From positions 1 through 63,174 of the forward strand of contig CALWDO010000011.1 of assembly GCA_944376715.1 (NCBI GenBank): a stretch of DNA of 63,174 nt. The letters are read 5' to 3'. The translations under genes and the position numbers were made by a program. Shown here in pieces: positions 1-49,284 of this stretch. The notes beneath the pieces are model-generated. The model was not told the DNA's origin. It saw nothing but the letters and a program-made list of their open reading frames with translations, and ran no database searches. The DNA is from an uncultured Lachnoclostridium sp. (lineage in GTDB: Bacteria > Bacillota > Clostridia > Lachnospirales > Lachnospiraceae). Within the stretch, counting starts at the first letter, position 1, and each line of letters starts with the position of its first letter.

Positions 1-398
1 TTCGCGGTCCGAGGAATCATCCGCAGGAAATGAAAGAAGCCAAGAAATATCATGCAAATGTTATTACTGCAAAAGAAGTAAAAGAAATCGGTTATAAGGC
101 TGCCATTGCAAAAGCATTGGAGCTGGCAAAGAAAGATACGGAAGTGCTTTATGTGACAGTATGCTCTGACTGCCTTGACGGAGCGGCAAATCCGGACGGT
201 CCGATTGATCCGTGCGGACTTACTTCTTTCGAAATCGGCATGATGATCAATGAATGCGGAGCCGCAGGTGCCTGCTCCTTTGATTTTGTAGAACTTTATC
301 CTGAAAGCAGGACACCACAGATTGGTGTACATACTGCAAATTACTTTGCTTTGTATTTTATGAACGGAGTTGCCAGAGGCCGTTTGGAGAATCGGTAA
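1..398 (+). CDS. Ureohydrolase (arginase/agmatinase/formiminoglutamase family), C-terminal part
   Basis: The frame is open to the left edge, so the gene starts outside the window; what is visible is the last 132 residues. The ureohydrolase signature is recognisable: YVTVCSDCLDGAANPDG followed by PCGLTSFE corresponds to the family's metal-binding SxDxDxxDP...PGGLT block, and VELYPE matches the later conserved glutamate segment. The family hydrolyses guanidino or formimino compounds at a binuclear manganese site. Oddity: the first aspartate of the DxD pair is a cysteine here (CSD). The substrate cannot be told from this fragment. It converges on the carbamoylase/ammonia-lyase gene and ends in a hairpin. 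Confidence 0.8.
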   Translation, partial: RGPRNHPQEMKEAKKYHANVITAKEVKEIGYKAAIAKALELAKKDTEVLYVTVCSDCLDGAANPDGPIDPCGLTSFEIGMMINECGAAGACSFDFVELYPESRTPQIGVHTANYFALYFMNGVARGRLENR

Positions 399-410
399 CA
401 AAGCTGTGAT

Positions 411-443
411 ATGCGCCGCCTGAAGATCAGTGCGGCGCATTTT
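411..443 (+). terminator. Hairpin terminator of the ureohydrolase gene
   Basis: ATGCGCCGC pairs with GCGGCGCAT (9 bp, 12-nt loop) followed by a short T run. It overlaps the last codons of the convergent gene. Confidence 0.6.
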
Positions 444-2856
444 GAGCATATACAATTTCTTTGTAGGAAACGGGATCCGTATCGCCCTCTGTATTGAACA
501 GAAGAATCACAGAATCCGGTCCCAGTTCTAAGGCCTCCCGGGCTGCCTGCATAGAGTCATCTTCCAGGAGTATTCTGACAGTTCCGAGAGTAACGGCTCC
601 GGATTCTCCGGAAACCACAGGCGGATCATCACCGGCCGGACCGGCATAAGTCCGCATCCCGCAGACAGTGACAAAATCCGGACAGGAAAAATAGCCGGAG
701 ACAAAATCCCGGAGAACCGGCCAGGCTAACCTGCTGGGAGTTCCGCAATTCAGACCGGCCATGATGGTCTTCGGATTCCCTACGACAGAATGTGCCTTAC
801 CGTCTCTATATAGTGCAGAGAGATAGATACAGGGGGCCGCATCCGGTTCCACCGTACTGACAATGGGGCGGAAATCTTCACCGTCGTAATAGTTCATCAA
901 AAAACCGCAGATTCCTCCTGCCATGGATCCGACTCCTGCCTGCAGGAATACATGAGTTGGCCGGATATCATGCGCTTCCAGTTCTTCGATTGCTTCCATA
1001 CCCATAGTCAGGTATCCCTGTGTGATCCACAGAGGAATCTGTTCATAATTCATCCATGCCGTATCCTGAATCAAGATCCATCCATTTTCTTTGCTGATTC
1101 TTTCTGCGCAGGCAACAGTTTCGTCATAATTTTTATCCGTAATTTCTACGATGGCCGGACCGGCGCTACGGATCGCCTGGGCTCTTTCTTCCGATGATCC
1201 GGCAGGCATGAGAACGTATGCCCGGCAGCCGAATAATCCTGCCGCCCATGAAACACCTTTTCCATGATTGCCGTCTGTGGCAGTTACAAATGTGATGCCG
1301 TCCGTCTGCTTCCTTATGTTTTCCTGCTGGAAGCAGGAAAAATCCGCCTGTTCCGGATCAATTTCCAGCTTTTCGCACAAAATACGATACATGGCATATG
1401 AGCTTCCAAGCCCCTTAAACGCATTTAATCCGAACCTTTTCGATTCATCCTTCACATAGATTCCTTTTATATTCCACCTTCTTGCCAGATCCGGAAGAGC
1501 GGTCAAAGGAGTGGGCCGGTATCCGGGTATGCTTCTGTGAAATCTTTGGACACGGCAGGCGTCTTCAATTGTAAGATCTTTTGGGAGTTCCAGTCCAGAG
1601 ACCGGCTTTCTTGTAATGACTCTGATTTTCGCGCGGGAAAGTTCTTCAGTTACATCCAGAAGAACATTCGCACCTGCGATCAGTTCCTGTTCCCGGGTAT
1701 ATTCCAGAGGATTATGGCTGATTCCCTTGACACTGGGAACAAAGATCATGGCGCTGGGGCACAGGTGCGCCATCATCTGAGCATCCTGACCGGCCCCGGA
1801 AGTGATTCGACGGGAAGCAAGTCCCCGGCCAGCCGCCGCGTTTTCGATCATACGCACAATATTTTCGTCGAACTGTACCGGTTCAGAGCGTGCAAGCCTG
1901 CGAACCGTGACGCTGACTCCATCACTTTCTTCCAGACTGTACAGGTATTCCATGAGTTTTTTCTCTTCTTCTTTCAACATTTGTTCATCCGGATTTCTCA
2001 TATCAACTGTAAATACCGCTCTGGATGATATGACGTTTATAGCGTTGGGCTCCAGCTTCAGATATCCAGCTGTCGCGACCGTTTTTCCTGCCGACCGGAC
2101 ACAAAGTTCTCTCAGAAAGATGATGGCCTTTGCGGCCGCCAGTCCGGCATCTTTTCTCATAGAAACCGGTGTCGTCCCTGCGTGATTGGCCGCGCCCTCC
2201 ACTGTGACTTCGTACCAGTATGTTCCCTGCAGATTTTCCACCGCGCCGATGGGAATCTTTTCTGTATCAAGGACAGGCCCCTGCTCTATGTGAAGTTCCA
2301 CATATGCGCAGGGAATCATGAATCCCGGTGTCAGCGTTCCTTTATATCCGATTCTGTCCAACTCTTCTCCCAGAACAGTTCCGTCCGTCCCCTTTGCGGC
2401 AAGCGCCTCTTTGACAGACAAAACTCCTGCGTATACAGAAGATCCCATCATATCCGGCGCGTATCGCACGCCTTCTTCGTTGGTAAAAACTGCCACAGCG
2501 ATGGGAACGGAAGGATCATACCCGGACTCTTTCAGAGCGGCGATCACTTCGATCCCCGCGATCACGCCGACGCAGCCGTCGTATTGCCCGGCATGGATTA
2601 CAGTATCAATATGCGAGCCAAGCAGTACCGGCATGCCGCCCTGATTCTGATCCGTTTCCCATATACCGAACAGATTTCCGACCATATCTGTCTCCACTCG
2701 AAGTCCTGTCTCCCTCATCCAGCCGACGACCATATCCCTGCCTTCTTTGTCTGCAGTCGTGGCAGCCAGCCTTGTCCTTCCGCCAGAGTCCTCCGCACCG
2801 ATTTTTCCCAGTTCCCGTATTCTTTCTGTCAGACGTTTCCCATTGATTGACCGCAT
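427..2856 (-). CDS. Bifunctional M20-type amidohydrolase (carbamoylase) fused to diaminopropionate ammonia-lyase
   Basis: Two complete enzymes in one 809-residue chain. Residues 1 to about 410 are a hydantoinase/carbamoylase-family (allantoate amidohydrolase-like) metalloamidase; the expected ligands are visible: H82 in GSHIDTV, D93 in QYDG, E127/E128 in TNEEG, H189 in HIEQGP and H381 in SHNPLEYT. Residues about 425-809 are a PLP-dependent diaminopropionate ammonia-lyase (YgeX family), with the PLP lysine K481 in GLNAFKGLGSSYA, the TATDGNHGKG loop, AGVGSMAGG and SGESGAVTLG. The lyase is known to turn 2,3-diaminopropionate into pyruvate and ammonia. I infer that the first domain removes a carbamoyl group from an N-carbamoyl diamino acid and passes it on. 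The ATG at 2856 has GGAGG 5 nt upstream; a GTG at 2862 sits too close. It lies 15 bp after the M24 gene, in the same operon. Confidence 0.88.
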   Translation of the reverse strand: MRSINGKRLTERIRELGKIGAEDSGGRTRLAATTADKEGRDMVVGWMRETGLRVETDMVGNLFGIWETDQNQGGMPVLLGSHIDTVIHAGQYDGCVGVIAGIEVIAALKESGYDPSVPIAVAVFTNEEGVRYAPDMMGSSVYAGVLSVKEALAAKGTDGTVLGEELDRIGYKGTLTPGFMIPCAYVELHIEQGPVLDTEKIPIGAVENLQGTYWYEVTVEGAANHAGTTPVSMRKDAGLAAAKAIIFLRELCVRSAGKTVATAGYLKLEPNAINVISSRAVFTVDMRNPDEQMLKEEEKKLMEYLYSLEESDGVSVTVRRLARSEPVQFDENIVRMIENAAAGRGLASRRITSGAGQDAQMMAHLCPSAMIFVPSVKGISHNPLEYTREQELIAGANVLLDVTEELSRAKIRVITRKPVSGLELPKDLTIEDACRVQRFHRSIPGYRPTPLTALPDLARRWNIKGIYVKDESKRFGLNAFKGLGSSYAMYRILCEKLEIDPEQADFSCFQQENIRKQTDGITFVTATDGNHGKGVSWAAGLFGCRAYVLMPAGSSEERAQAIRSAGPAIVEITDKNYDETVACAERISKENGWILIQDTAWMNYEQIPLWITQGYLTMGMEAIEELEAHDIRPTHVFLQAGVGSMAGGICGFLMNYYDGEDFRPIVSTVEPDAAPCIYLSALYRDGKAHSVVGNPKTIMAGLNCGTPSRLAWPVLRDFVSGYFSCPDFVTVCGMRTYAGPAGDDPPVVSGESGAVTLGTVRILLEDDSMQAAREALELGPDSVILLFNTEGDTDPVSYKEIVYAQNAPH

Positions 2857-2871
2857 ATTCACCTCCGAAAA

Positions 2872-4047
2872 TTAAAGGGCTGGAATTTCATGAAGTTCCC
2901 TGCGCCCACCGGAAAGAATTTCAAATCCGTCTTCTGTGACCAGAACATTTTCTTCAATGTCGAAGCATCCCAGATCACAAACATACCCGGGTTCACAAGT
3001 GATAACCATGCCGGGCTGCAGAACCGTACTGTCACAACCGGCGATAGAAGGGGGCTCTGTCAGCTGAAGTCCTACTCCATGTCCGGCTCTGCCGCACTCA
3101 AAGCTCCATGGCAGTCCGTGCTTCTCCATCTCATGTCCGCAGGTTTCATATATTTTCGCCGCTGGCATGCCGGGAGAGATGGTTTGAACCCCTTTCATAG
3201 TGATCTCATGGATGATGGACTGCAGGCGTCGCTGCTCCGCGGTAGGGCCGCCTACCACGCCGGCACGGCAGTAGTCAGTCCAATAATTGTAATACTGAAC
3301 ACCGGCATCGATCCAGACCAGATCTCCTTTTTTCAGCTGTCTGTTTGTGGGCCGCGCACTGATGCGGTCATAATTTCCGGGGCCGGAAATAACGATGATA
3401 AAGCCGGGTTGTTCTGCGCCTTCCTGCGCCATGATTGACACCAGTTTCCGTTCTACCTCTTTTTCGGTCATACCTTCGCAGATTTCAGAGAAGACCCGGT
3501 CAAAAGAACGTGCGGCGATTTGATTTGCTTTGCGCATACAGGCAATTTCTGCCGGCATCTTGATCATGCGGAGTTTCCAGATAAGCATGCTGGCGTCCAC
3601 AAATACGGCATGGGGAAGTCGTTCTTTTACGGCGAGATAATCGTTGACAGCCATGTCCATACGTTGTTCATATCCCAGTTCCCAGCCTACTTTGCCAGTA
3701 TCCATGCCCAGTTCTTTCATGATTTCAACGATACCTTCCACCGGTGCACCCATGATATCGCTAAATGTTCGTACGTCCCGTACTGCAGAACGGGAGAGTG
3801 CCTCAGGGCCGCCAAAATCCTGAACGTATAACACCGGCTCTTTGTCCCGTGGAATAAATACAAAAATAGTCCTGGTAAAAGTCGCCCAGTTCGCAAGTTT
3901 GCGGACACCGGTAAAATAATAATGATTTGCCGCCGCGGTGACTACCATGCCGGTCATGTCCGCTTCTTCCAATAACTTTTTTGCATTCTGTATCCGAAGT
4001 CTCATCTCTTCAATAGGAAAATCGAGATACTGCATCTGCTGTTTCAT
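2872..4047 (-). CDS. M24-family metallopeptidase (Xaa-Pro dipeptidase/creatinase fold)
   Basis: A 391-residue protein with an N-terminal creatinase-like domain (about 1-155) and a C-terminal pita-bread domain. The five metal ligands of active M24 peptidases are present: D in WIDAGVQ, D in WTDYCRAG, H in AGHGVGLQ, E in CEPGYV and E in DIEENVL. It is therefore more likely a metallopeptidase or a related hydrolase than a true metal-free creatinase. AGGAGG lies 8 nt before the ATG. It is the first gene of the operon with the carbamoylase/ammonia-lyase fusion, behind a promoter of MerR-activated type, so a role in breaking down a small nitrogen compound or dipeptide is likely. The substrate is unknown. 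Confidence 0.85.
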   Translation of the reverse strand: MKQQMQYLDFPIEEMRLRIQNAKKLLEEADMTGMVVTAAANHYYFTGVRKLANWATFTRTIFVFIPRDKEPVLYVQDFGGPEALSRSAVRDVRTFSDIMGAPVEGIVEIMKELGMDTGKVGWELGYEQRMDMAVNDYLAVKERLPHAVFVDASMLIWKLRMIKMPAEIACMRKANQIAARSFDRVFSEICEGMTEKEVERKLVSIMAQEGAEQPGFIIVISGPGNYDRISARPTNRQLKKGDLVWIDAGVQYYNYWTDYCRAGVVGGPTAEQRRLQSIIHEITMKGVQTISPGMPAAKIYETCGHEMEKHGLPWSFECGRAGHGVGLQLTEPPSIAGCDSTVLQPGMVITCEPGYVCDLGCFDIEENVLVTEDGFEILSGGRRELHEIPAL

Positions 4048-4099
4048 TTTTGTCCCTCCTGTCTCTTTTTCAGCTGTTTACAGACTGCCGTCTGCTTCC

Positions 4100-4130
4100 A
4101 GTATAATCGTTCTTTCCGCACGAATGTCAA
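4100..4130 (-). promoter_or_regulatory. MerR-type promoter with 19-bp spacer
   Basis: On the minus strand TTGACA (4125-4130) and TATACT (4100-4105) are separated by 19 bp, the over-long spacing typical of promoters untwisted by MerR activators. The spacer holds a TCGT-N9-ACGA inverted repeat. It lies between the merR gene and the M24 gene, about 50 bp before the latter's start. Confidence 0.7.
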
Positions 4131-4225
4131 GCGGATCAGAAAATAAAGATTTTCATTGCATCAGATCCATTTTCATTAAAATAAATAAAAAATTTACGGA
4201 ATAACTTTTGTCTTGGAAAAAGGTT

Positions 4226-5101
4226 CTATATTGCAGATACATTCAGCGGGAGATAGATCTTTGTTACAAAATTTTCCTCATGGCTGGTCATGGTTCTTCC
4301 AATGATCAGCTCCTGAAATGAGATGCCGGAGACGGAATAACCAATACTGGCGGCCCAGGCCATCAGCTCATCATAAAGCGGCTGCGTATAGCGGTAATGG
4401 CCGATATGAGTAGCGCAGGCGGCCAGAAAACCTCCGAACATCCTGCAGTGCTCCGTGTGATGTGCGCTTCCTGTAATATTGGAGAACAGTTCCAGATCCC
4501 CCTGTACTCCGTCATCTTTCAGAAACTGCTTTTTATAATGATCATGAAATACCAGAAACAGGGTAGAAGAAGTGGCCACATGTTCCGTCTCAGCGATCCG
4601 CTGCAGTTCCGCATACCGGCAAATAAAAGGATCATTTACACTGTAACTGCTATAATAGCGGGTAGAAAGGATAGGACGCTCGGCAATCGGGACAATACTG
4701 AATCCCTGAACCGGTGAGGCAATATTTTCACCGGACTGCGAGATCAAAGACAGGGCATTGTTCAGTTTCAGAAGGGTGTCTACCAGAGAATCATACCGTT
4801 TGATATGTTCGTAAAGCTGCTGCCTCTGAATCAGCATATTGCTTTCCAGCGTGGTTTTGATCTGATCCAGATTTTTGTCTTTAAGCAGACTTCCTATGCT
4901 TTTCAGCGGAAGCCCGATCCGTTTCAATTCCTTGATCAGCATAATATCTTCGATTTGCTGCTCGGTATAATAACGGTAACCATTGTATTCTCCCCGTCCT
5001 TTAGGAGAAAGTATCCCCTGCCTGTCATAGTGCCGGAGCTGTTCAGCAGACACATTACATATCTTCGCAATCTGTCCGATCGTATATTGTTTTTCTTTCA
5101 T
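4226..5101 (-). CDS. MerR-family transcriptional regulator with GyrI-like effector domain
   Basis: The 291-residue protein starts with a MerR winged helix (YTIGQIAKICNVSAEQLRHYDRQGIL, then GYRYYTEQQI), followed by a coiled-coil linker at about 75-125. The C-terminal half resembles the GyrI-like small-molecule binding domain (strands around SIVPIAERPILSTRYYS and the final EENFVTKIYLPL). Proteins of this kind bind drug-like or metabolite ligands and activate promoters with long spacers. Such a promoter lies directly downstream, facing the M24/carbamoylase-lyase operon, so that operon is its likely target. AGGAGG is present upstream of the ATG. The ligand is unknown. Confidence 0.85.
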   Translation of the reverse strand: MKEKQYTIGQIAKICNVSAEQLRHYDRQGILSPKGRGEYNGYRYYTEQQIEDIMLIKELKRIGLPLKSIGSLLKDKNLDQIKTTLESNMLIQRQQLYEHIKRYDSLVDTLLKLNNALSLISQSGENIASPVQGFSIVPIAERPILSTRYYSSYSVNDPFICRYAELQRIAETEHVATSSTLFLVFHDHYKKQFLKDDGVQGDLELFSNITGSAHHTEHCRMFGGFLAACATHIGHYRYTQPLYDELMAWAASIGYSVSGISFQELIIGRTMTSHEENFVTKIYLPLNVSAI

Positions 5102-5281
5102 AGGGAGTCATCCTCCTTTTCTGTTCGGTTGTATTTAGGAAAAATATAACACATGGCCTGAAAAAAATCCAAATCATTTCTGCCTAAACGCAGAAAACGG
5201 GATCCGAAGAGTCCGTATTGCTTCTGATCTTATTTCATGGTAAGATTAAAAGGATTAATCGGCGGATACAGGGAGATAGTC

Positions 5282-32485: not shown

Positions 32486-32977
32486 ATGTTAAGACTTGAT
32501 ATAAATCTGGTCTTTACCATCATCAATCTGCTGATCTGGTATGCGATTATCCGGATATTACTTTTTAAGAGGATTAACCGTGTCATCGATCAGAGGGAGC
32601 AGGCTATCCAGTCCCGCTACGCGGACGCGCAGAAGCTTCAGGATGAAGCGGCTGCCGAGAAGGATAAATATGCCACATCTCAGGCGCAGATTGAGGCGGA
32701 AAAGACCAAGGTGATGGACCAGGCACAGGAAGATGCCCGGGTGGAATACAATCACATTCTGGAAGAAGCCAACAAAAAGGCGGAACAGATCGTGGAGAAT
32801 TCCAAAAAAGAGGCTGTATTGGAGAAAGACAAGATCGTTTCCAAAGCGGAGCAGGAGATTCGTTCACTGATCCTGGATACTGCTGTTAAATCGATGCAGT
32901 CCTCCGGAAATGACAGCGCTCTTTACGATGAATTTTTGACTAAGACAGGTGAGGCGGGTCATGGAGAAAATGAATAG
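32486..32977 (+). CDS. atpF: ATP synthase F0 subunit b
   Basis: A 163-residue stalk subunit: one N-terminal membrane helix ([20 protein letters not shown]) and a long charged coiled coil, as usual. It overlaps the next gene (delta-alpha fusion) by 17 bp, the two being read in different frames. Confidence 0.94.
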
Positions 32978-34976
32978 TTATTTAGAACAACTGGCGGAAG
33001 CCCGCATCCAGCCTGACGTGCTGCAGCATGCGCTGGATATCCTGCAGGCCGTTCCCCAGATACAGGATGAACTGGAGAACCCTACCGTCCCCCATGAAAA
33101 GAAGGAGGACATTGTCCAGAAGATTTTTCCGGAAAAAGTCCGGAATTTTATTTTAAAACTGGCAGACGACAGCTGTCTTGGTTCTCTGGCTGACATCTTA
33201 AAAACATATATGGAGAAACCGGAAGAAGAGAGGACTCCGCTGGAATGCGTCCTGGAATATGTGACTGCTCCCAGCGACTCCCAGTTAGAAGGCATCCGGA
33301 AATTTCTCAGACAGAAATATCCGGGAAGGCCTCTGGAATTCCGGCAGAAAGAAAATCCGTCTATTGGAAGCGGATTTATTCTTCGCGCAGGCAACCAGGA
33401 ATATGACTGGAGCACGAAGGGAAGAGAGCGTCTCCTGGAGAAGGAGCTGGCGTCCCTGCACGTGGCAGACGGCGATCTGTTAGCCCAAAAAGGAATTATC
33501 AGTATCCTGAAAGGCAGCCTGGACGGCGTGGATATCGAGAGCCAGGAGATCGGCGTGGTCAGCAGAGTCGGAGACGGCATCGCTTATATCGATGGCGTAG
33601 ATCACGCCATGTACGGCGAGATCCTCGTCTTTGACGGAGGATTAAAAGGTATGGTGCAGGATATCCGCGCCCATGAGGTGGGTTGTATCCTGTTTGGTAA
33701 AGACACCAGTATTGAAGAAGGAACTAAAGTCGCCCGTACCGGGCGGATGGCAGGTATCCCGGTAGGCGATGCGTTTATCGGACGCGTCGTAAATGCCCTG
33801 GGAGCTCCTATTGATGGAAAAGGCGAAATTGAAGCTTCTGATTACCGTCCTGTAGAGAATAAAGCGCCTGGAATCGTAGACCGTAAATCCGTAGACACAC
33901 CGTTGGAAACCGGTATTCTGTCCATCGATTCCATGTTCCCTATCGGAAGAGGCCAGCGTGAGCTGATCATCGGGGACCGTCAGACAGGTAAAACCTCCAT
34001 TGCCACGGACGCAATTCTGAACCAGAAAGGGAAGAATGTAATCTGTATCTATGTGGCAATCGGGCAGAAAGCGTCTACTGTGGCTAAATTGGTACGCACT
34101 TTTGAACAGTATGGCGCTATGGACTATACGATCGTCCTGTCTGCTACGGCCAGTGAACCGGCGCCGCTGCAGTATATCGCGCCTTATTCCGGCACTGCCC
34201 TGGCAGAATATTTCATGTACCGGGGACAGGATGTACTGATCGTTTATGATGATCTGTCAAAGCATGCGGTAGCATACCGTTCTCTGTCCCTGCTGCTGGA
34301 GCGTTCGCCCGGACGTGAAGCCTATCCTGGGGATGTGTTCTATCTTCATTCCCGTCTGTTGGAGCGTTCCAGCCGGCTTAGCGATGAGTTAGGAGGCGGA
34401 TCCATTACGGCGCTTCCGATCATAGAGACTCAGGACGGCGACGTATCCGCTTATATACCGACCAACGTGATCTCCATCACTGATGGACAGATTTTCCTGG
34501 AAAGCGATCTGTTCTTTGCAGGTATGCGTCCGGCAGTCAATGTAGGGCTTTCCGTATCCCGTGTGGGCGGCGCGGCCCAGACAAAAGCAATGAAAAAAGC
34601 GGCTGGAAGTGTACGTATCGACCTGGCTCAGTACCGCGAGATGGAAGTATTTACCCAGTTCAGCTCCGATCTGGACGCTGTAACTCAGGAACAGCTCCAG
34701 TATGGCAAGGGATTGATGGAACTTCTGAAGCAGCCTCTGTGCCAGCCTCTTTCTCTGCACGAGCAGGTAATTACACTTTGTGCAGCCACACATAAACAAC
34801 TGTTGGATGTGCCTGTCAAAGATGTGAAGTCCTTCCAGAGAGGATTTTTGGACTGGATCGACCAGAAACATCCGGAGATCGGCAACGAGATCGAACAGAT
34901 GCATACGCTGAATGACAGTCTCACTGATAAAATCATCAATGCGGTTAAGGAATACAAGAGTCAGGTGGTGAAGTAA
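32961..34976 (+). CDS. atpHA: ATP synthase F1 delta-alpha fusion subunit
   Basis: A 671-residue chain in which subunit delta (about 1-166) runs into subunit alpha (about 175-671) with no stop or start between. The delta part shows [17 protein letters not shown] and, at its end, [24 protein letters not shown], the standard C-terminus of delta. The alpha part has all main features: [13 protein letters not shown], Walker [39 protein letters not shown] (in parts) and [14 protein letters not shown]. Delta normally sits on top of the alpha3beta3 head, one per enzyme, whereas three alphas are needed; a fusion would give three deltas unless it is cut or unless extra domains stay unused. The ATG at 32961 is chosen by its upstream AGGTGAGG; the next is at 32970. 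Confidence 0.93.
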
Positions 34977-43281: not shown

Positions 43282-44328
43282 TTATTCCTTCTCTCTGAGC
43301 TGCACCACATTGGCGGCCCTGCGCTTTCTTTCTTCTTTCATGGCTGCATAATGCTTACGGGTAGTATTTACATTTTTGTGTCCCAGGACGTCTGCCACCA
43401 GGTAGATGTCCCCGGTTTCCTGGTATAAAGCGGTTCCGTAAGTACTCCGTAATTTGTGGGGCGTGATCCTTTTTGCCGTGGCTGTGGAGGCATATTTTTT
43501 TACCAGGCGCTCCACGGACCGCACCGTGATCCGGGTATTATTCTGGGAGATAAACAAAGCGTTTTCATGTCCCGGCTCCGGAGTCATCTCCAGACGTTCG
43601 TCCAGATAATTCCGGAGCATTTCCTCCACTTCTTCGCCAAAATATACAATATCTTCATTTCCTCCTTTGCGGATCACCCGCATGGCGCCGTTGTCAAAAT
43701 CCAGATCTCCGATATCCAGACCCACCAGTTCCGTAACCCGAACACCTGTTCCCAGAAGAGTCACGATGATCGCCAGGTCGCGGGCACGGGTCTTTTCATG
43801 CCAGCATTTCTGCGCTTTGGTCAGTTTTTCTCCTGATTCCACATTATCGATCAGCTGGGCCACTTCGTTTGCATCCAGACGGATAATATTTTTTTCCTTT
43901 ACTCTGGGAACGTCCACCACTGAAGGAGCATTTTTTTCGATCATTCCTTTTTTGTGGTAATAGCCGAAAAAGGTATTTAAAGTCGCCAGTTTGCGCGCCT
44001 TGCCTTCCTCGTGGTTGCGGTGAAGCTGACCGTCCCTTTCATAATAGGTCAGAAAGGAGAGATATTCCTCAATGTCTACAGGCTGGATATCATCCAGAAT
44101 CGATACCGGAAGCGTACGGATGTCCTTATCCTTAAAGTACGGATTCTGTGTACGGAGAAAATAAAAAAACGTATTCAGATCATAAGCATAATTGCGCCGG
44201 GTATTCGTAGCTTTTTTGATTTCCATGGCGCGGAAGAAATCAGAAGCGAACGCAGGAAGTTCCTTTACAAGTTCTCTGAGTTGGGCAGTGTTTTTCAGGT
44301 CCAGTTGTTCGTGGTAAGTCAATGCCAT
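43282..44328 (-). CDS. Tyrosine recombinase, XerS-like
   Basis: A 348-residue tyrosine recombinase. The N-terminal core-binding domain (about 1-150) has LPVSILDDIQPVDIEEYLSFL, close in form to streptococcal XerS; the catalytic domain has Arg in TGVRVTELV, Lys in RKGGNED, H-x-x-R in TPHKLRSTYG, His in LGHKNVNTT and the nucleophile Tyr in RKHYAAM. It is longer than XerC/XerD (about 300) and about the length of the single-recombinase XerS, which resolves chromosome dimers at a dif site placed next to its own gene. An 11-6-11 palindrome lies 36 bp upstream of the start. No phage or plasmid genes surround it. Confidence 0.85.
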   Translation of the reverse strand: MALTYHEQLDLKNTAQLRELVKELPAFASDFFRAMEIKKATNTRRNYAYDLNTFFYFLRTQNPYFKDKDIRTLPVSILDDIQPVDIEEYLSFLTYYERDGQLHRNHEEGKARKLATLNTFFGYYHKKGMIEKNAPSVVDVPRVKEKNIIRLDANEVAQLIDNVESGEKLTKAQKCWHEKTRARDLAIIVTLLGTGVRVTELVGLDIGDLDFDNGAMRVIRKGGNEDIVYFGEEVEEMLRNYLDERLEMTPEPGHENALFISQNNTRITVRSVERLVKKYASTATAKRITPHKLRSTYGTALYQETGDIYLVADVLGHKNVNTTRKHYAAMKEERKRRAANVVQLREKE

Positions 44329-44363
44329 AAAAATGCCTCCTTGAAAGTGGTTTTAGGTATATT

Positions 44364-44391
44364 GCGTCGTAAAACTGCGATTTTGCGACGC
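44364..44391. other. Candidate dif site (chromosome dimer resolution)
   Basis: GCGTCGTAAAA (44364-44374), CTGCGA, TTTTGCGACGC (44381-44391): two 11-bp arms, complementary but for one G-T, around a 6-bp centre. This is the geometry of dif, placed just upstream of the xerS-like gene as in streptococci, and at the point where gene orientation switches from mostly + to mostly -. An autoregulatory operator is the alternative. Confidence 0.6.
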
Positions 44392-44468
44392 GTTATATCA
44401 GTACCACTATTGTACAATTTATGTATATATTTTTCAAGAAAGTTCTGTATATTTTTTCCCCTTGGTCG

Positions 44469-44498
44469 TTGTATTTTTCCGGTATTCTATGTTATGAT
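44469..44498 (+). promoter_or_regulatory. Promoter of the small toxin gene
   Basis: TTGTAT (44469-44474), 18 bp, TATGAT (44493-44498), about 70 bp before the toxin start. Confidence 0.5.
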
Positions 44499-44570
44499 AA
44501 TCCGGTAATCGAAAAGAAGGCAGATAAGGATGCTTTTCTGGTGCCCTCTAGTCTATAGGGGGTGATGCCC

Positions 44571-44648
44571 ATGAACACAATGGAAGTCTTGACTTTAGTG
44601 CTCGTGATTTTTGCTGTTCTGACATACATAGACAACAAAAAGAAATAG
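44571..44648 (+). CDS. Type I toxin, putative holin-like (Hol-Tox) peptide
   Basis: A 25-residue peptide, MNTMEVLTLVLVIFAVLTYI then DNKKK: one membrane helix and a basic tail, the form of holin-like type I toxins of Firmicutes. The strong site AGGGGGTGATG lies before the ATG and is partly folded away by CCCTCTA-GTC-TATAGGG just upstream, a common way to delay toxin translation. An antisense transcript covers its 3' end. Alternative in-frame start ATG 44565. Confidence 0.78.
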   Translation: MNTMEVLTLVLVIFAVLTYIDNKKK

Positions 44649-44729
44649 CATCCCCCGCCCAAGGTTGATGCTATCTCTTTTATAAAATAGTCTTCACTGA
44701 GGGCATCGGATTTCTCCGACTGCCTTTCT
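44636..44729 (-). ncRNA. Antisense antitoxin RNA
   Basis: A minus-strand RNA of about 94 nt is predicted from the promoter at 44736-44765 to a T run after the shared hairpin. It includes a hairpin (GGCAGTCGGAGAAATCCGATGCC region) and overlaps the end of the toxin mRNA, as in TxpA/RatA-type systems. Ends are estimates. Confidence 0.65.
44645..44674. terminator. Bidirectional terminator shared by toxin and antitoxin RNA
   Basis: ATAGCATC (44645-44652) pairs with GATGCTAT (44667-44674). On the + strand CTCTTTT follows; on the - strand TTCTTTTTG follows. Confidence 0.75.
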
Positions 44730-44784: not shown

Positions 44785-45675
44785 TCAGTTACTCGTTTCC
44801 TCGGCCGCGGTTCCCTGATTCAGTACTTCCGTGATTTTTTCAATCATCTCATCTTCCTTCAGGCGGAATTTGATCTCTACCCGGCGGGAAGCGGCCATAT
44901 CAACCTTCGTGGAATTCATCTGATAGATAGGCTCACTGTAGGAACGGCCATTGACCGTCATAAGCTCCTGGAGCTGCCCGATCTGTGTGTCCGTCAGGCC
45001 ATTATCGGAATCCAGGCAAAAGTTCGCGACCGCGTTTGCCCGGTTGAAGGACAATGTCATGTTGCTCTGGTATCCTCCGTCGGTATCCGTATGTCCTTCT
45101 ATAATAATCTCCGCAATATATGGGCGGAAATTATCCTGCAGCAGCACCCCCAGGTACATAGGAATAATCTCCTCAAGAGTCTTCTTACTGTTCTCTGTCA
45201 GGACAGAGCTGTTATATCGGAACAAAACGTCCGAGGAAAAGGCGATGGATCCCGTCTGAGAATCCACCTGCATGGAGGAATTGCTGAAGCGCTCCTGAAG
45301 CGCCCTGATAATATCCGTCCGGATCCCCACGATGTCTTCCAGTTCACTCTTAGTAGCACGAAGTTCTGCCTGCGCCTCATCGATCTCGCGGTACGCCGCG
45401 GCCAGTTCCGCTTCTGTACTGCTCGCCTGGGCGTACGCCTTCTCCAGCGCATCCATAGAAGCCTGCAGATCTTCCTGGGACAGTTCCAGTTCCGATCTGG
45501 TGGCGTTCAGGCTGATCTGAGCGTTTTCCAGATCGGTCTGCTTCTGCCGGTAAATACCCAGCGTGATGGCAATCATCAGGATAAAGATCAGAAGCAATGC
45601 GGCCATCATGTCGGAATACGACTGCCAGTAACTGGGAGCCTCAAATACTGCCCTGTTCTTTCTTTTATTTCTCAT
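44785..45675 (-). CDS. OmpA/MotB-like channel partner with peptidoglycan-binding domain
   Basis: A 296-residue protein: one N-terminal membrane helix with an acidic residue (SYSDMMAALLLIFILMIAI; Asp22 is the likely proton-carrying residue), a long coiled coil (about 45-125), and a C-terminal OmpA-like domain (IIIEGHTDTDGGYQSNMTLSFNRA, DMAASRRVEIKF in parts) that binds the cell wall. It pairs with the MotA-like protein encoded just upstream (11-bp overlap), forming a stator-like ion channel. The pair resembles ZorA/ZorB of Zorya defence, but no ZorC or ZorD gene is present, and no flagellar genes are seen. Confidence 0.82.
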   Translation of the reverse strand: MRNKRKNRAVFEAPSYWQSYSDMMAALLLIFILMIAITLGIYRQKQTDLENAQISLNATRSELELSQEDLQASMDALEKAYAQASSTEAELAAAYREIDEAQAELRATKSELEDIVGIRTDIIRALQERFSNSSMQVDSQTGSIAFSSDVLFRYNSSVLTENSKKTLEEIIPMYLGVLLQDNFRPYIAEIIIEGHTDTDGGYQSNMTLSFNRANAVANFCLDSDNGLTDTQIGQLQELMTVNGRSYSEPIYQMNSTKVDMAASRRVEIKFRLKEDEMIEKITEVLNQGTAAEETSN

Positions 45676-46795
45676 ATAAATCCCTCATCTGATGAAAGGT
45701 ATAAAGTTCATTGCTCAAATCGTCGCAGGTACTGGAGAGTTTCTCTTCCAGCTCTCTCTGCCGTTCCAGCGTCATGGTCAGCGTCTCGTTCATGGTACGG
45801 CTGGATTCCAGCAGAAGCCTGGTGCTCTCTTCCAGTCTCTGGAAGTTCCTGGCATAGGTTCCCTGGGCTTCGCAGGATTCATGCAGGGTCTTTCCCAGCT
45901 GTTCAAAGTCGGCTCCAAGCACATCCGACATCTGATTGACAAATTGCTGAACGATCCGGTCCAGCCCTTTGCTCTGTTCCTCTGCATTCCCTTTCAGAAG
46001 CTCCAGAATCCGCTTCAGCGCATTCGCCATATTAGCCTGATAGATCAGCATGGCGCTGGTAGTCTCGTCCACAGAAGCCGGCACAGGAGCTGCGCATTCC
46101 TGAAAAGTCATCAGAAAACGGGATAATTTTCCATAGGCGTCCGCCATCAGGCTGCGGTAAACAAAGTTAAATACGATAGAAAAGAAAATGCCGTACACGG
46201 ATGTGTGAAAGGCCACTTTCATACCGTCCAGAAGCGGAGCAATATTGTCCGAAATAGTAAACACATCGCTTCCTGTAAATGAAATCATCCCCATGGACAA
46301 ACCGATAAAAGTACCAAGGATACCAAGCCCTGTCAGCGTCCCGCCGACCGCGGAATTAAAATGGGCGCTGACCACGCTGTCCAACAGGTCTTCATTGATA
46401 TACTCCTCCAGAGAACACACCTGGGATACGGCGCCCTTCGCGTTCGTAGACGCGGAGATTCTCTTCTGATACCGCTCAAACTGACGGTTCAGCACCGGAC
46501 TGGAAAAAGTGTCCTTTTTCGTGCGGTATTCTTCCCACAGGCTCTTCTGTACGGATTCATGTTTTGCCTGCATCTCTTCTGCCGTATCCACAAGGGAATC
46601 GGTCACGCGGTTCAGCCTGGAAAAGCTGACAAAAGATATGATGAACAGAATCCCGATCACAATCAGAAAAGCGACATTGATCGCCAGATTGCTGACAGAT
46701 ATGGATTCACCGGAAAAGGCTCCGTTTATGTACAGGATGATGGCAAACATCAGTACATACAGCACAGCCAGTAAATAATAAAGTCTGTTTCTCAT
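45665..46795 (-). CDS. MotA/TolQ/ExbB-like channel protein with long cytoplasmic tail
   Basis: A 376-residue membrane protein. Two helices near the start (LYYLLAVLYVLMFAIILYI, INVAFLIVIGILFIISFVSF in parts), a cytoplasmic section of about 80 residues, the MotA-like helix GTLTGLGILGTFIGLSMGMI, a further helix (TSVYGIFFSIVFNFVYRSL), and a helical coiled-coil tail of about 150 residues. AGGAGG fits the ATG at 46795, 21 bp inside a longer frame. It is the channel ring partner of the OmpA-like protein; what its ion flow drives is unknown. Confidence 0.82.
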   Translation of the reverse strand: MRNRLYYLLAVLYVLMFAIILYINGAFSGESISVSNLAINVAFLIVIGILFIISFVSFSRLNRVTDSLVDTAEEMQAKHESVQKSLWEEYRTKKDTFSSPVLNRQFERYQKRISASTNAKGAVSQVCSLEEYINEDLLDSVVSAHFNSAVGGTLTGLGILGTFIGLSMGMISFTGSDVFTISDNIAPLLDGMKVAFHTSVYGIFFSIVFNFVYRSLMADAYGKLSRFLMTFQECAAPVPASVDETTSAMLIYQANMANALKRILELLKGNAEEQSKGLDRIVQQFVNQMSDVLGADFEQLGKTLHESCEAQGTYARNFQRLEESTRLLLESSRTMNETLTMTLERQRELEEKLSSTCDDLSNELYTFHQMRDLYEK

Positions 46796-46954
46796 GAATA
46801 ACCTCCTCTTTTGCATGCAGCCCGATATACAACTACTGCTGCTCTACTGCATCTAATGTAACATATTTTATATTGACCTACAATCCAGGACAGGGAATCT
46901 TAAAGGAATCTTCATGAAATCTTAATACAGCCTTTGCCATATTTTCAAATGACG

Positions 46955-47580: not shown

Positions 47581-49284
47581 TTACATATTCCGGAATCTGT
47601 CGTAACGCTGACATACCAGCTCTTCTCCGCTCATTTTCCCGTATTTTTCCATAAATTCTTCGATTCTTCCATCCATACGCCTTGCAACTTCCGGAAGGGT
47701 CTCGGCGGTGACCGGCTCTTCTTCTTCAATCACCTGCTCGATGATTCCCAGATCCTTCAGGTCATCTGCGGTCAGACGCATCTTCCCGGCAGCCTCTTGC
47801 GCGCGGCTGCTGTCTTTCCAGAGGATAGATGCAAATCCTTCCGGAGACAGAATAGAATAAGTAGAATTTTCCAGCATCCATACTTCATTGCCTACAGCCA
47901 GCGCCAGCGCCCCTCCGCTGCCGCCCTCTCCGATCACGATGGAGAGTATCGGCACTTTCAGTCCGGACATTTCCAGGAGTGAACGGGCGATGGCTTCTCC
48001 CTGCCCTCTCTCTTCTGCTTCCATACCGCAGAAAGCTCCCGGCGTATCCACAAAGCAAATGACGGGACGGCCGAACTTCTCTGCCTGTTTCATCAGGCGC
48101 TGCGCCTTGCGGTATCCTTCCGGATACGGCATGCCGAAATTGCGGATGATATTTTCCTTTGTTGTCTTGCCTTTCTGCTGGCCGATAACAGTTACCGGAA
48201 CCCCATGAAACTTGGCGATTCCGCTCACAACTGCCCCATCGTCGCGGAAAGTCCTGTCTCCATGCAGTTCGATAAACCCGTCGAAAAGCTGTTCAATATA
48301 ATCCAGACTGGTGGGACGTTCCGCGCTCCTGGCCGCCTGAACCTTCTCCCAGGCGTTTGCCGGACGTTTCTTCTTATCCTTGGACTTTTTATCATGAAGC
48401 ATCTCCGGAGTCTCTAAAGACTGTTCCAGGTGTTCCGGAACAGCTTCCTTATGCAGACAGATCAGATGATACAGCGTGTCTTTTAACTCCATACGCTCTA
48501 CGATGCCGTCGATAATGCCATGCTCAAGCAGGAATTCCGAACTTTGAAATCCCTTTGGCAGTTTCTGACCGATCGTCTGCTCAATCACGCGGGGACCTGC
48601 AAAACCAACAAGAGCTCCCGGTTCCGCCAGAATGATATCTCCCAACATCGCGAAACTTGCCGTCACGCCTCCGGTGGTCGGATCAGTTAAAACTGTAATA
48701 TAGAGAAGCCCCGCATCCGAATGACGTCTCAGAGCGGCGCTGGTTTTTGCCATCTGCATCAGGGAGACGATTCCCTCCTGCATCCTGGCCCCTCCGGAAG
48801 CGGTAAACAGGATCAGAGGAAGACGAAGCTCCGTCGCCTTCTCGATCGCCCTTGTCAATTTTTCCCCTACCACATATCCCATACTGCCCATCAGGAAACG
48901 GACGTCACAGACGCCGATCACCGCTTCTTCTCCATTTATACGGATCTTTCCGGTGACAACCGCTTCATCCAGTTTGGTTTTTTCTTTCAATCCGGCAATC
49001 TTTTCCTGGTATCCTTCATAGTGCAGCGGATCCGGAATTTCTATCCCTCTATCCCATTCTTCAAAGGATTTGGGATCAGCCACCATACGTATGCGGTTGC
49101 GGGCCCTTACGCGGAAATATCCTCCGCAGCGGTAGCAGACATATTGATTGCTTACCACATCATCCTTGTAGAGAGTCTCTCCGCATTTCGGACATTTGAT
49201 CCAGAGGCCTTCCGGAACGGACGGCTCCGCAAGCTTGCCCGGCAAATGGATATGCCCCGTTTTCTTAAACATTTCCTTTAACAT
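47581..49284 (-). CDS. accDA: Acetyl-CoA carboxylase carboxyltransferase, beta-alpha (AccD-AccA) fusion
   Basis: A 567-residue fusion of both carboxyltransferase subunits. The AccD half (1 to about 285) starts with the zinc ribbon [12 protein letters not shown] ... CYRCG and has [10 protein letters not shown] and [16 protein letters not shown]. The AccA half (about 305-567) shows [34 protein letters not shown] and [15 protein letters not shown] charged linker with KKSKDKKKR joins them. It moves the carboxyl group from biotin to acetyl-CoA, the first step of fatty acid synthesis. It follows accC after 8 bp. Confidence 0.93.

What the first reader, a model, noticed from the sequence alone, without database searches (positions are those of the whole stretch)
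44329..44570. Possible replication terminus: dif-like site next to a XerS-like recombinase, at the gene-orientation switch
Seen: an 11-6-11 palindrome (44364-44391) 36 bp before a 348-residue XerS-like tyrosine recombinase gene; left of it genes are mostly on +, right of it almost all on -. Known: streptococcal XerS works alone on a dif site beside its own gene. Inferred: the terminus of this chromosome lies here.
Basis: partly seen in the sequence, partly recalled or inferred. Interest (0 to 1): 0.8.

Follow-up and report, generated by a model that had tools for sequence, protein, structure and literature searches.

The report
New dif/Xer system in gut Lachnospirales
This stretch very likely holds the chromosome's dimer-resolution site beside its recombinase gene at the replication terminus; it is an apparently undescribed version shared across an order of mostly gut bacteria, and some bacterial viruses carry copies of the same kind of site.

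Summary
The palindrome (44364-44391; conserved site 44361-44394) is single-copy in the held genome and lies 35 bp before a tyrosine recombinase gene; GC skew switches sign about 245 bp from it. Orthologues occur in 106 of 116 sampled genomes of the order (E<=1e-60). A site with 14-bp arms and a variable 6-bp centre lies upstream of the gene in 42 of 55 regions examined, and its three arm types follow the recombinase tree with the minimum of 2 changes. In 16 genomes where site and gene are 0.9-56 kb apart, skew changes sign across the site in all 16, and the fitted breakpoint is nearer the site than the gene in 14. In 5 of 6 near-complete genomes the gene lies 47-49% of the way round from dnaA. 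In two records a filamentous-phage-like element sits between dif-type direct repeats beside the gene, natural evidence that the site recombines. Corrections: the enzyme fails NCBI's XerS cut-off and forms its own clade; the genome also keeps a XerD-like gene; whole-genome skew of this fragmented genome could not be computed. My searches found no description of this system. Recombination and dimer resolution are inferred, not shown.

The parts
   Evidence: single copy; conserved in relatives, arms conserved and centre variable; skew switch
43282..44328 (-). tyrosine recombinase, 348 aa, XerS-like clade special to Lachnospirales in the sampled set
   Evidence: NCBIfam and Pfam scans; R197, K221, H291, R294, H317, Y327 each invariant in 82 of 82 orthologues; tree
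44409..44437 (-). promoter-like TTGAAA-17-TACAAT upstream of the site, so dif would lie in the leader of the recombinase mRNA (weak)
   Evidence: consensus scan: 1 found where shuffles give a mean of 1.6; similar hexamers visible before the site in L011, L012 and L023 (read)
44571..44649 (+). 25-aa hydrophobic small ORF right of the site, adjacent but not shown to belong
   Evidence: read; no Pfam or NCBIfam hit

Best explanation
The 34-bp site is the chromosomal dif of this bacterium, and the adjacent gene encodes the tyrosine recombinase that binds its two arms and exchanges strands at the borders of the 6-bp centre. When replication leaves a chromosome dimer, recombination between the two dif copies at the division septum turns it into two monomers, presumably driven by the FtsK/SpoIIIE translocase. 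The system is shared across Lachnospirales, is separate in sequence from XerC/XerD and from the XerS set compared here, and marks the place where GC skew changes sign. Shown by sequence: site, gene, linkage, co-variation of site and enzyme, position at the skew switch and opposite dnaA, phage-like elements between site repeats. Inferred: binding, cleavage positions, dimer resolution, FtsK control, and possible self-repression because dif lies between the predicted promoter and the start codon.
For: (1) Orthologues at E<=1e-60 in 106 of 116 genomes of the order and, by my count of the table, in 180 of 200 of the family (195 of 200 at E<=1e-3). (2) Core pattern TCGYWAAA-N6-TTTNRCGA in 101 of 200 family genomes, against 14 of 200 (my count of the table) with the reversed control. 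Of the 78 listed places in genomes with a listed gene, 58 lie within 10 kb of it, 57 of them upstream; chance gives about 0.5. (3) Of 55 regions around the gene, 42 have an upstream site scoring 6.9 or more, including 13 of the 20 chosen because they lacked the exact pattern. (4) Arms conserved, centre variable: in 50 host sites the outer AACTA columns not fixed by the search carry 0.7-1.5 bits, neighbours beyond them 0.4 or less, centre columns 0.1-0.6. (5) Three arm types need 2 changes on the recombinase tree, the minimum; shuffled mean 22.9, 0 of 200 as low. (6) Skew: sign flip at the gene start in 36 of 52 regions against 0 of 36 control segments; across dif in 16 of 16 regions with gene and site apart, breakpoint within 150 bp of dif in 9 of 16; in G144 and G166 the gene is 56 and 37 kb away and the switch is at dif. 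(7) dnaA-to-gene distance 47.2, 48.2, 48.8, 47.3 and 48.5% of the chromosome in G185, G191, G085, G046, G035. (8) Phage-like elements between dif-type repeats in L017 and L258.
Against: No experiment. In 11 of 55 regions no site scored above 6, and in two more (G144, G190) the top score was not the real site (the matrix was trained on 44 sites from these same regions). 17 of 78 pattern places are on other contigs than the gene and 3 are more than 10 kb away. Skew jumped the other way in 2 of 55 regions (G164, G193) and 16 of 52 showed no sign flip. In G198 and G154 the breakpoint is nearer the gene than dif; for sites close to the gene it often falls at the far end of the gene, as head-on coding pulls the skew: median 929 bp from dif in 28 regions. 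In G178 dnaA is split over two places and dif lies 34% or 21% round. The own genome has a XerD-like gene in a recA-rny-proC neighbourhood, so it is not strictly a one-Xer genome.
Confidence: 0.92

Rival explanations
1. The palindrome is only an operator or RNA hairpin controlling the recombinase gene, and its place at the skew switch is incidental.
For: It lies in the gene's 5' region, downstream of a promoter-like sequence, and within 300 bp of the gene in many relatives.
Against: The same site lies 0.6 to 10 kb upstream in many genomes and 37-56 kb away in two; skew follows the site; only the centre varies; phage-like elements are inserted exactly at it. A secondary role in autoregulation is not excluded.
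Confidence: 0.03
2. The gene is the integrase of a mobile element and the palindrome its attachment site.
For: It belongs to the phage integrase superfamily; phage-like elements use the site.
Against: One orthologue in nearly all sampled genomes of the order at a conserved chromosomal position opposite dnaA; no mobile genes between it and core genes in the window; in L017 and L258 the inserted element lies beside the gene, not around it.
Confidence: 0.02
3. The site is dif but is worked by the XerD-like protein, alone or together with the XerS-like one.
For: The own genome has a XerD-like gene (309 bits, cut-off 329.6), and G046 has one over the cut-off.
Against: In G185, G191, G035 and G178 no hit of the XerD model reaches 160 bits apart from the XerS-like gene's own 152-165; the best other hits of the first three do not group with XerD in the tree (G178's was not put in). 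Yet G185 and G178 have the exact-pattern site, and G035 and the G191 leader a variant. Arm types follow the XerS-like protein.
Confidence: 0.04

Closest known systems
XerS/difSL of streptococci and lactococci (PMC5357621, passages seen)
   Different: NCBIfam XerS model 186 bits against a cut-off of 267; separate clade from the three over-cut-off XerS proteins sampled, all from one other family, about 27-35% local identity; difSL is a 31-bp site with TTTCCGAAAA and TTTTCTTGAAA arms and an 11-bp central region, here 14-bp arms and 6 bp
XerL/dif of Legionellales (PMC9765430, abstract, outline and passages seen)
   Same: Order-wide single-recombinase system missed by homology searches, with a mobile element integrated at dif and a dif near the cumulative skew maximum
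   Different: There dif and xerL are more than 400 kb apart; here they are mostly neighbours; unrelated host group; there proven by experiment
XerH/difH of Helicobacter and Campylobacter (PMC2731167, passages seen)
   Same: Single recombinase, usually next to its site; variable central hexanucleotide
   Different: Low sequence similarity (PDB XerH 66 bits, below XerA 81 and XerD 73)
XerC/XerD/dif
   Same: Same chemistry expected; site build of two arms and 6 bp; place at the skew switch
   Different: Two recombinases and another site; P0001 scores 162 against 335 (XerC) and 150 against 330 (XerD)
IMEX such as CTXphi, which integrate at dif with host Xer (PMC4246890 listing; PMC5357621 passages)
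   Same: Filamentous-phage-like elements between dif repeats in L017 and L258
   Different: Hosts are Lachnospirales with this other recombinase; the tailed-phage contigs carrying the site beside terminase are not shown to integrate

Membership tests
Xer/dif chromosome dimer resolution | Tyrosine recombinase with the catalytic R-K-H-R-H-Y set (set recalled) | tested here: met
   R197, K221, H291, R294, H317, Y327 each 82 of 82; PF00589 at 121 bits
Xer/dif chromosome dimer resolution | Site of about 28-34 bp, inverted arms around a variable centre, non-coding, one per chromosome | tested here: met
   one copy in an 88% complete assembly, up to 3 mismatches
Xer/dif chromosome dimer resolution | Site at the GC-skew switch opposite the origin | tested here: met
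   window; 16 of 16 sign changes across dif; 5 of 6 dnaA distances 47-49%, the sixth unclear. Whole-genome skew of the own genome not computed
Xer/dif chromosome dimer resolution | Recombination at the site, dimer resolution, FtsK dependence | not testable with these tools
   Only indirect: phage-like elements between dif repeats
XerS/difSL | Scores as XerS in NCBI's curated model | tested here: not met
   186.3 bits, cut-off 267
XerS/difSL | Groups with XerS in a tree | tested here: not met
   Own clade 100/99; XerS (3 proteins of one family) 100/100 apart, within a larger 98/88 group. No streptococcal protein was in the tree
XerS/difSL | difSL arms and 11-bp central region | tested here: not met
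   Different arms and 6-bp centre by reading; difSL as described in PMC5357621
XerS/difSL | Site adjacent to the recombinase gene | tested here: met
   57 of 78 listed places within 10 kb upstream
XerC/XerD | XerC and XerD over NCBI cut-offs, with a canonical dif | tested here: not met
   P0001 far below both; own XerD-like 309.5 of 329.6; canonical dif pattern (recalled) 0 in own genome, but found in only 7 of 10 comparison genomes, so a weak test. XerC model not run genome-wide
IMEX target | Mobile elements integrated at the site with site repeats at both ends | tested here: met
   L258: 29-bp direct repeat around 6,228 bp; L017: 18-bp direct repeat 5,777 bp apart; Zot-like and replication proteins inside. 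Not in the window itself

The most novel reading that the evidence does not exclude
An order-wide Xer/dif system that has gone undescribed in a dominant group of gut bacteria, in which the dif site itself, wherever its gene lies, sets the composition boundary of the chromosome to within about 100 bp in half of the cases, and which is exploited by two unrelated kinds of virus: filamentous phages that insert at dif, and tailed phages that carry a host-type dif beside their terminase genes, perhaps to have the host recombinase circularise or monomerise their genomes as Cre-lox does for phage P1.
Probability: 0.3. Interest if true: 0.82.

Novelty: new variant of a known kind. Interest (0 to 1): 0.68.

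Why it matters
Lachnospirales are major gut bacteria, and their chromosome dimer resolution does not appear in the papers I could search. The site gives a simple genetic handle for cell-division and segregation studies, a landmark for orienting genomes, and a predictable insertion point used by phages. Genomes in which dif has moved up to 56 kb from its gene are natural experiments for the open question whether skew and termination follow dif.

Tried and rejected
First upstream listing of L032-L061 ignored strand, so part of it showed the wrong end of the gene; redone with orientation. GTCG-type site in IMG/VR: 0 contigs. Prophages flanked by two sites in tailed-phage records: the far ends of the records of L223, L282, L277, L276 and L229 showed no second site. 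Viral and host centres share only 2 hexamers (of 43 and 33), which speaks against simple integration into the sampled hosts. Two GenBank phage-labelled records with a 55% identical recombinase (H1, H2) were checked for prophages at dif: L381 has the site about 1.35 kb upstream with the skew switch near it, L380 a variant site; no flanking pair seen. A terminase search in the phage collection gave distant matches only, all below 60% identity. G135's two sites 2.8 kb apart are in inverted order and were not followed up. Canonical-dif search was too noisy to weigh much. Literature searches; none listed a Lachnospiraceae dif or XerS by title or abstract, and only PMC9863647 held 'dif site', 'Xer' and 'Lachnospiraceae' together (listing seen, not read). 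Papers seen: PMC5357621, PMC3025954, PMC2731167 passages; PMC9765430 abstract, outline, passages; PMC6199493 and PMC3317982 abstract and outline.

Full report
What is there. At 44364-44391 the window has GCGTCGTAAAA-CTGCGA-TTTTGCGACGC, 35 bp before the start of a 348-aa tyrosine recombinase on the minus strand. It is single-copy in the held genome up to 3 mismatches. Symmetry alone would not carry the case, as the window has three such dyads.

The enzyme. It matches XerS (186 bits), XerA (176), XerC (162) and XerD (150) models, all below NCBI's cut-offs of 267, 220, 335 and 330. Six recombinase residues (assignment recalled) are invariant in 82 of 82 orthologues. In a tree of 62 proteins the Lachnospirales sequences form one clade (100/99; it includes the gene from viral record L258, which is the host's), apart from three XerS proteins of another family and from XerD. 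Orthologues at E<=1e-60 are in 106 of 116 genomes of the order; in the family 195 of 200 match at E<=1e-3, of which I count 180 at E<=1e-60.

The site family. Upstream of orthologues the palindrome recurs in unrelated surroundings. The core pattern is in 101 of 200 family genomes; the reversed control is in 14 by my count. The printed list covers 89 places in 81 genomes. 78 places are in genomes whose gene was listed: 58 within 10 kb (57 upstream, 34 bp to 9.6 kb), 3 further on the same contig, 17 on other contigs. A matrix built from 44 sites finds an upstream site scoring 6.9 or more in 42 of 55 regions, 13 of the 20 chosen for lacking the pattern among them; 11 regions have none above 6, and in G144 and G190 the best score is not the real site. 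The consensus is about AACTAT-TCGYNAAA-N6-TTTNRCGA-ATAGTT, with low information in the centre. Three arm types (GTCG, TTCG, ACGAC) fall on the recombinase tree with 2 changes, the minimum, in 52 proteins from 53 of 98 regions; near copies are included. This ties the site to this enzyme.

Terminus. In the window the skew breakpoint is 245 bp from the site. In the one-contig genome G185 skew switches at about 1.78 Mb, where its site (1,778,566) and gene (1,780,487) lie; in G191 at about 1.54 Mb, where its gene lies (1,536,129). dnaA lies 47-49% of the chromosome away in G185, G191, G085, G046 and G035; in G178 dnaA is split and the distance is 34% or 21% (lengths), though skew switches at the site there too. 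Around the gene, skew changes sign in 36 of 52 regions, against 0 of 36 control segments of G185 and G191. To part site from gene I took 16 of the 30 places at least 0.9 kb apart: skew is plus before and minus after the site in 16 of 16; the fitted breakpoint is within 150 bp of the site in 9, within 500 bp in 11, and nearer the site than the gene start in 14 (not G198 and G154). The clearest are the five with more than 9 kb between them (G190, G159, G099, G144, G166): breakpoints 449, 51, 70, 100 and 1,882 bp from dif. dif lies between convergent genes in such cases, so gene orientation contributes to the sharpness.

Natural recombination. L017 (GTDB contig JAUNHB010000020.1) has two dif-type sites as direct repeats 5,777 bp apart, the nearer one a hybrid about 66 bp before the recombinase; between them are a Zot-like protein and a Rep_trans replication protein, as in filamentous phages. 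L258 (IMG/VR, isolate source) has a 29-bp direct repeat around 6,228 bp with a G2P-like replication protein, a virion-protein match and a weak Zot match, then the recombinase gene. These look like elements inserted at dif by the host enzyme.

Viruses with the site. The pattern AACTATTCGYDAAA-N6-TTTHRCGAATAGTT is in at least 120 IMG/VR stretches (scan stopped at its limit; 80 held). Among the 80, two carry the full host gene. Frequent neighbours of the site are terminase small subunits (clusters of 25 and 17 loci), large subunits (24 and 14) and a P22-like portal (17), named from one representative each. Of 44 of the 80 records searched, 18 have a tyrosine recombinase, one being L258's host gene. 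What the site does in tailed phages is open; P1 lox-like circularisation is my guess.

Other Xer. The own genome has a XerD-like gene (309 bits) in a recA-rny-proC neighbourhood. Four of six near-complete relatives show no XerD-grade hit, so XerD cannot be essential to this system.

Prior work. Single-recombinase systems are known (XerS, XerH, XerL). In the library searched no paper held 'XerS' with 'Lachnospiraceae', and the searches listed none on this group. Subscription papers are mostly outside the library, so 'undescribed' is provisional.

Noticed in passing
window 32949-34976 (+): ATP synthase delta (OSCP) and alpha subunits in one 675-aa reading frame.
   Followed up: no
window 47581-49284 (-): AccD and AccA (acetyl-CoA carboxylase beta and alpha) fused in one 567-aa frame.
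   Followed up: no
window 44571-44649 (+): 25-aa hydrophobic ORF between dif and the OmpA/MotB-like gene; looks like a type I holin-like toxin (recalled likeness, no database hit).
   Followed up: no
window 44785-46816 (-): OmpA/MotB-like and MotA/ExbB-like pair next to dif; resembles ZorB/ZorA but far below those cut-offs; an OmpA/MotB-like neighbour is also present in L017.
   Followed up: partly
window 1-5200: Mostly minus-coded with negative skew, unlike the rest of the left side; perhaps a local inversion.
   Followed up: no
L020 upstream of the gene: Only the left half of a dif site remains 38 bp before the gene.
   Followed up: no
L222-L301 (IMG/VR): Tailed-phage contigs with a host-type dif beside terminase genes.
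   Followed up: partly
L140-L142 (G221, G304, G265): XerS over NCBI's cut-off in all 3 of 199 phylum genomes that reach it, all of one unnamed family with 5.6-7.3 Mb genomes.
   Followed up: no
L029, L038, L076: Extra half-sites next to dif (read), perhaps accessory binding sites.
   Followed up: no
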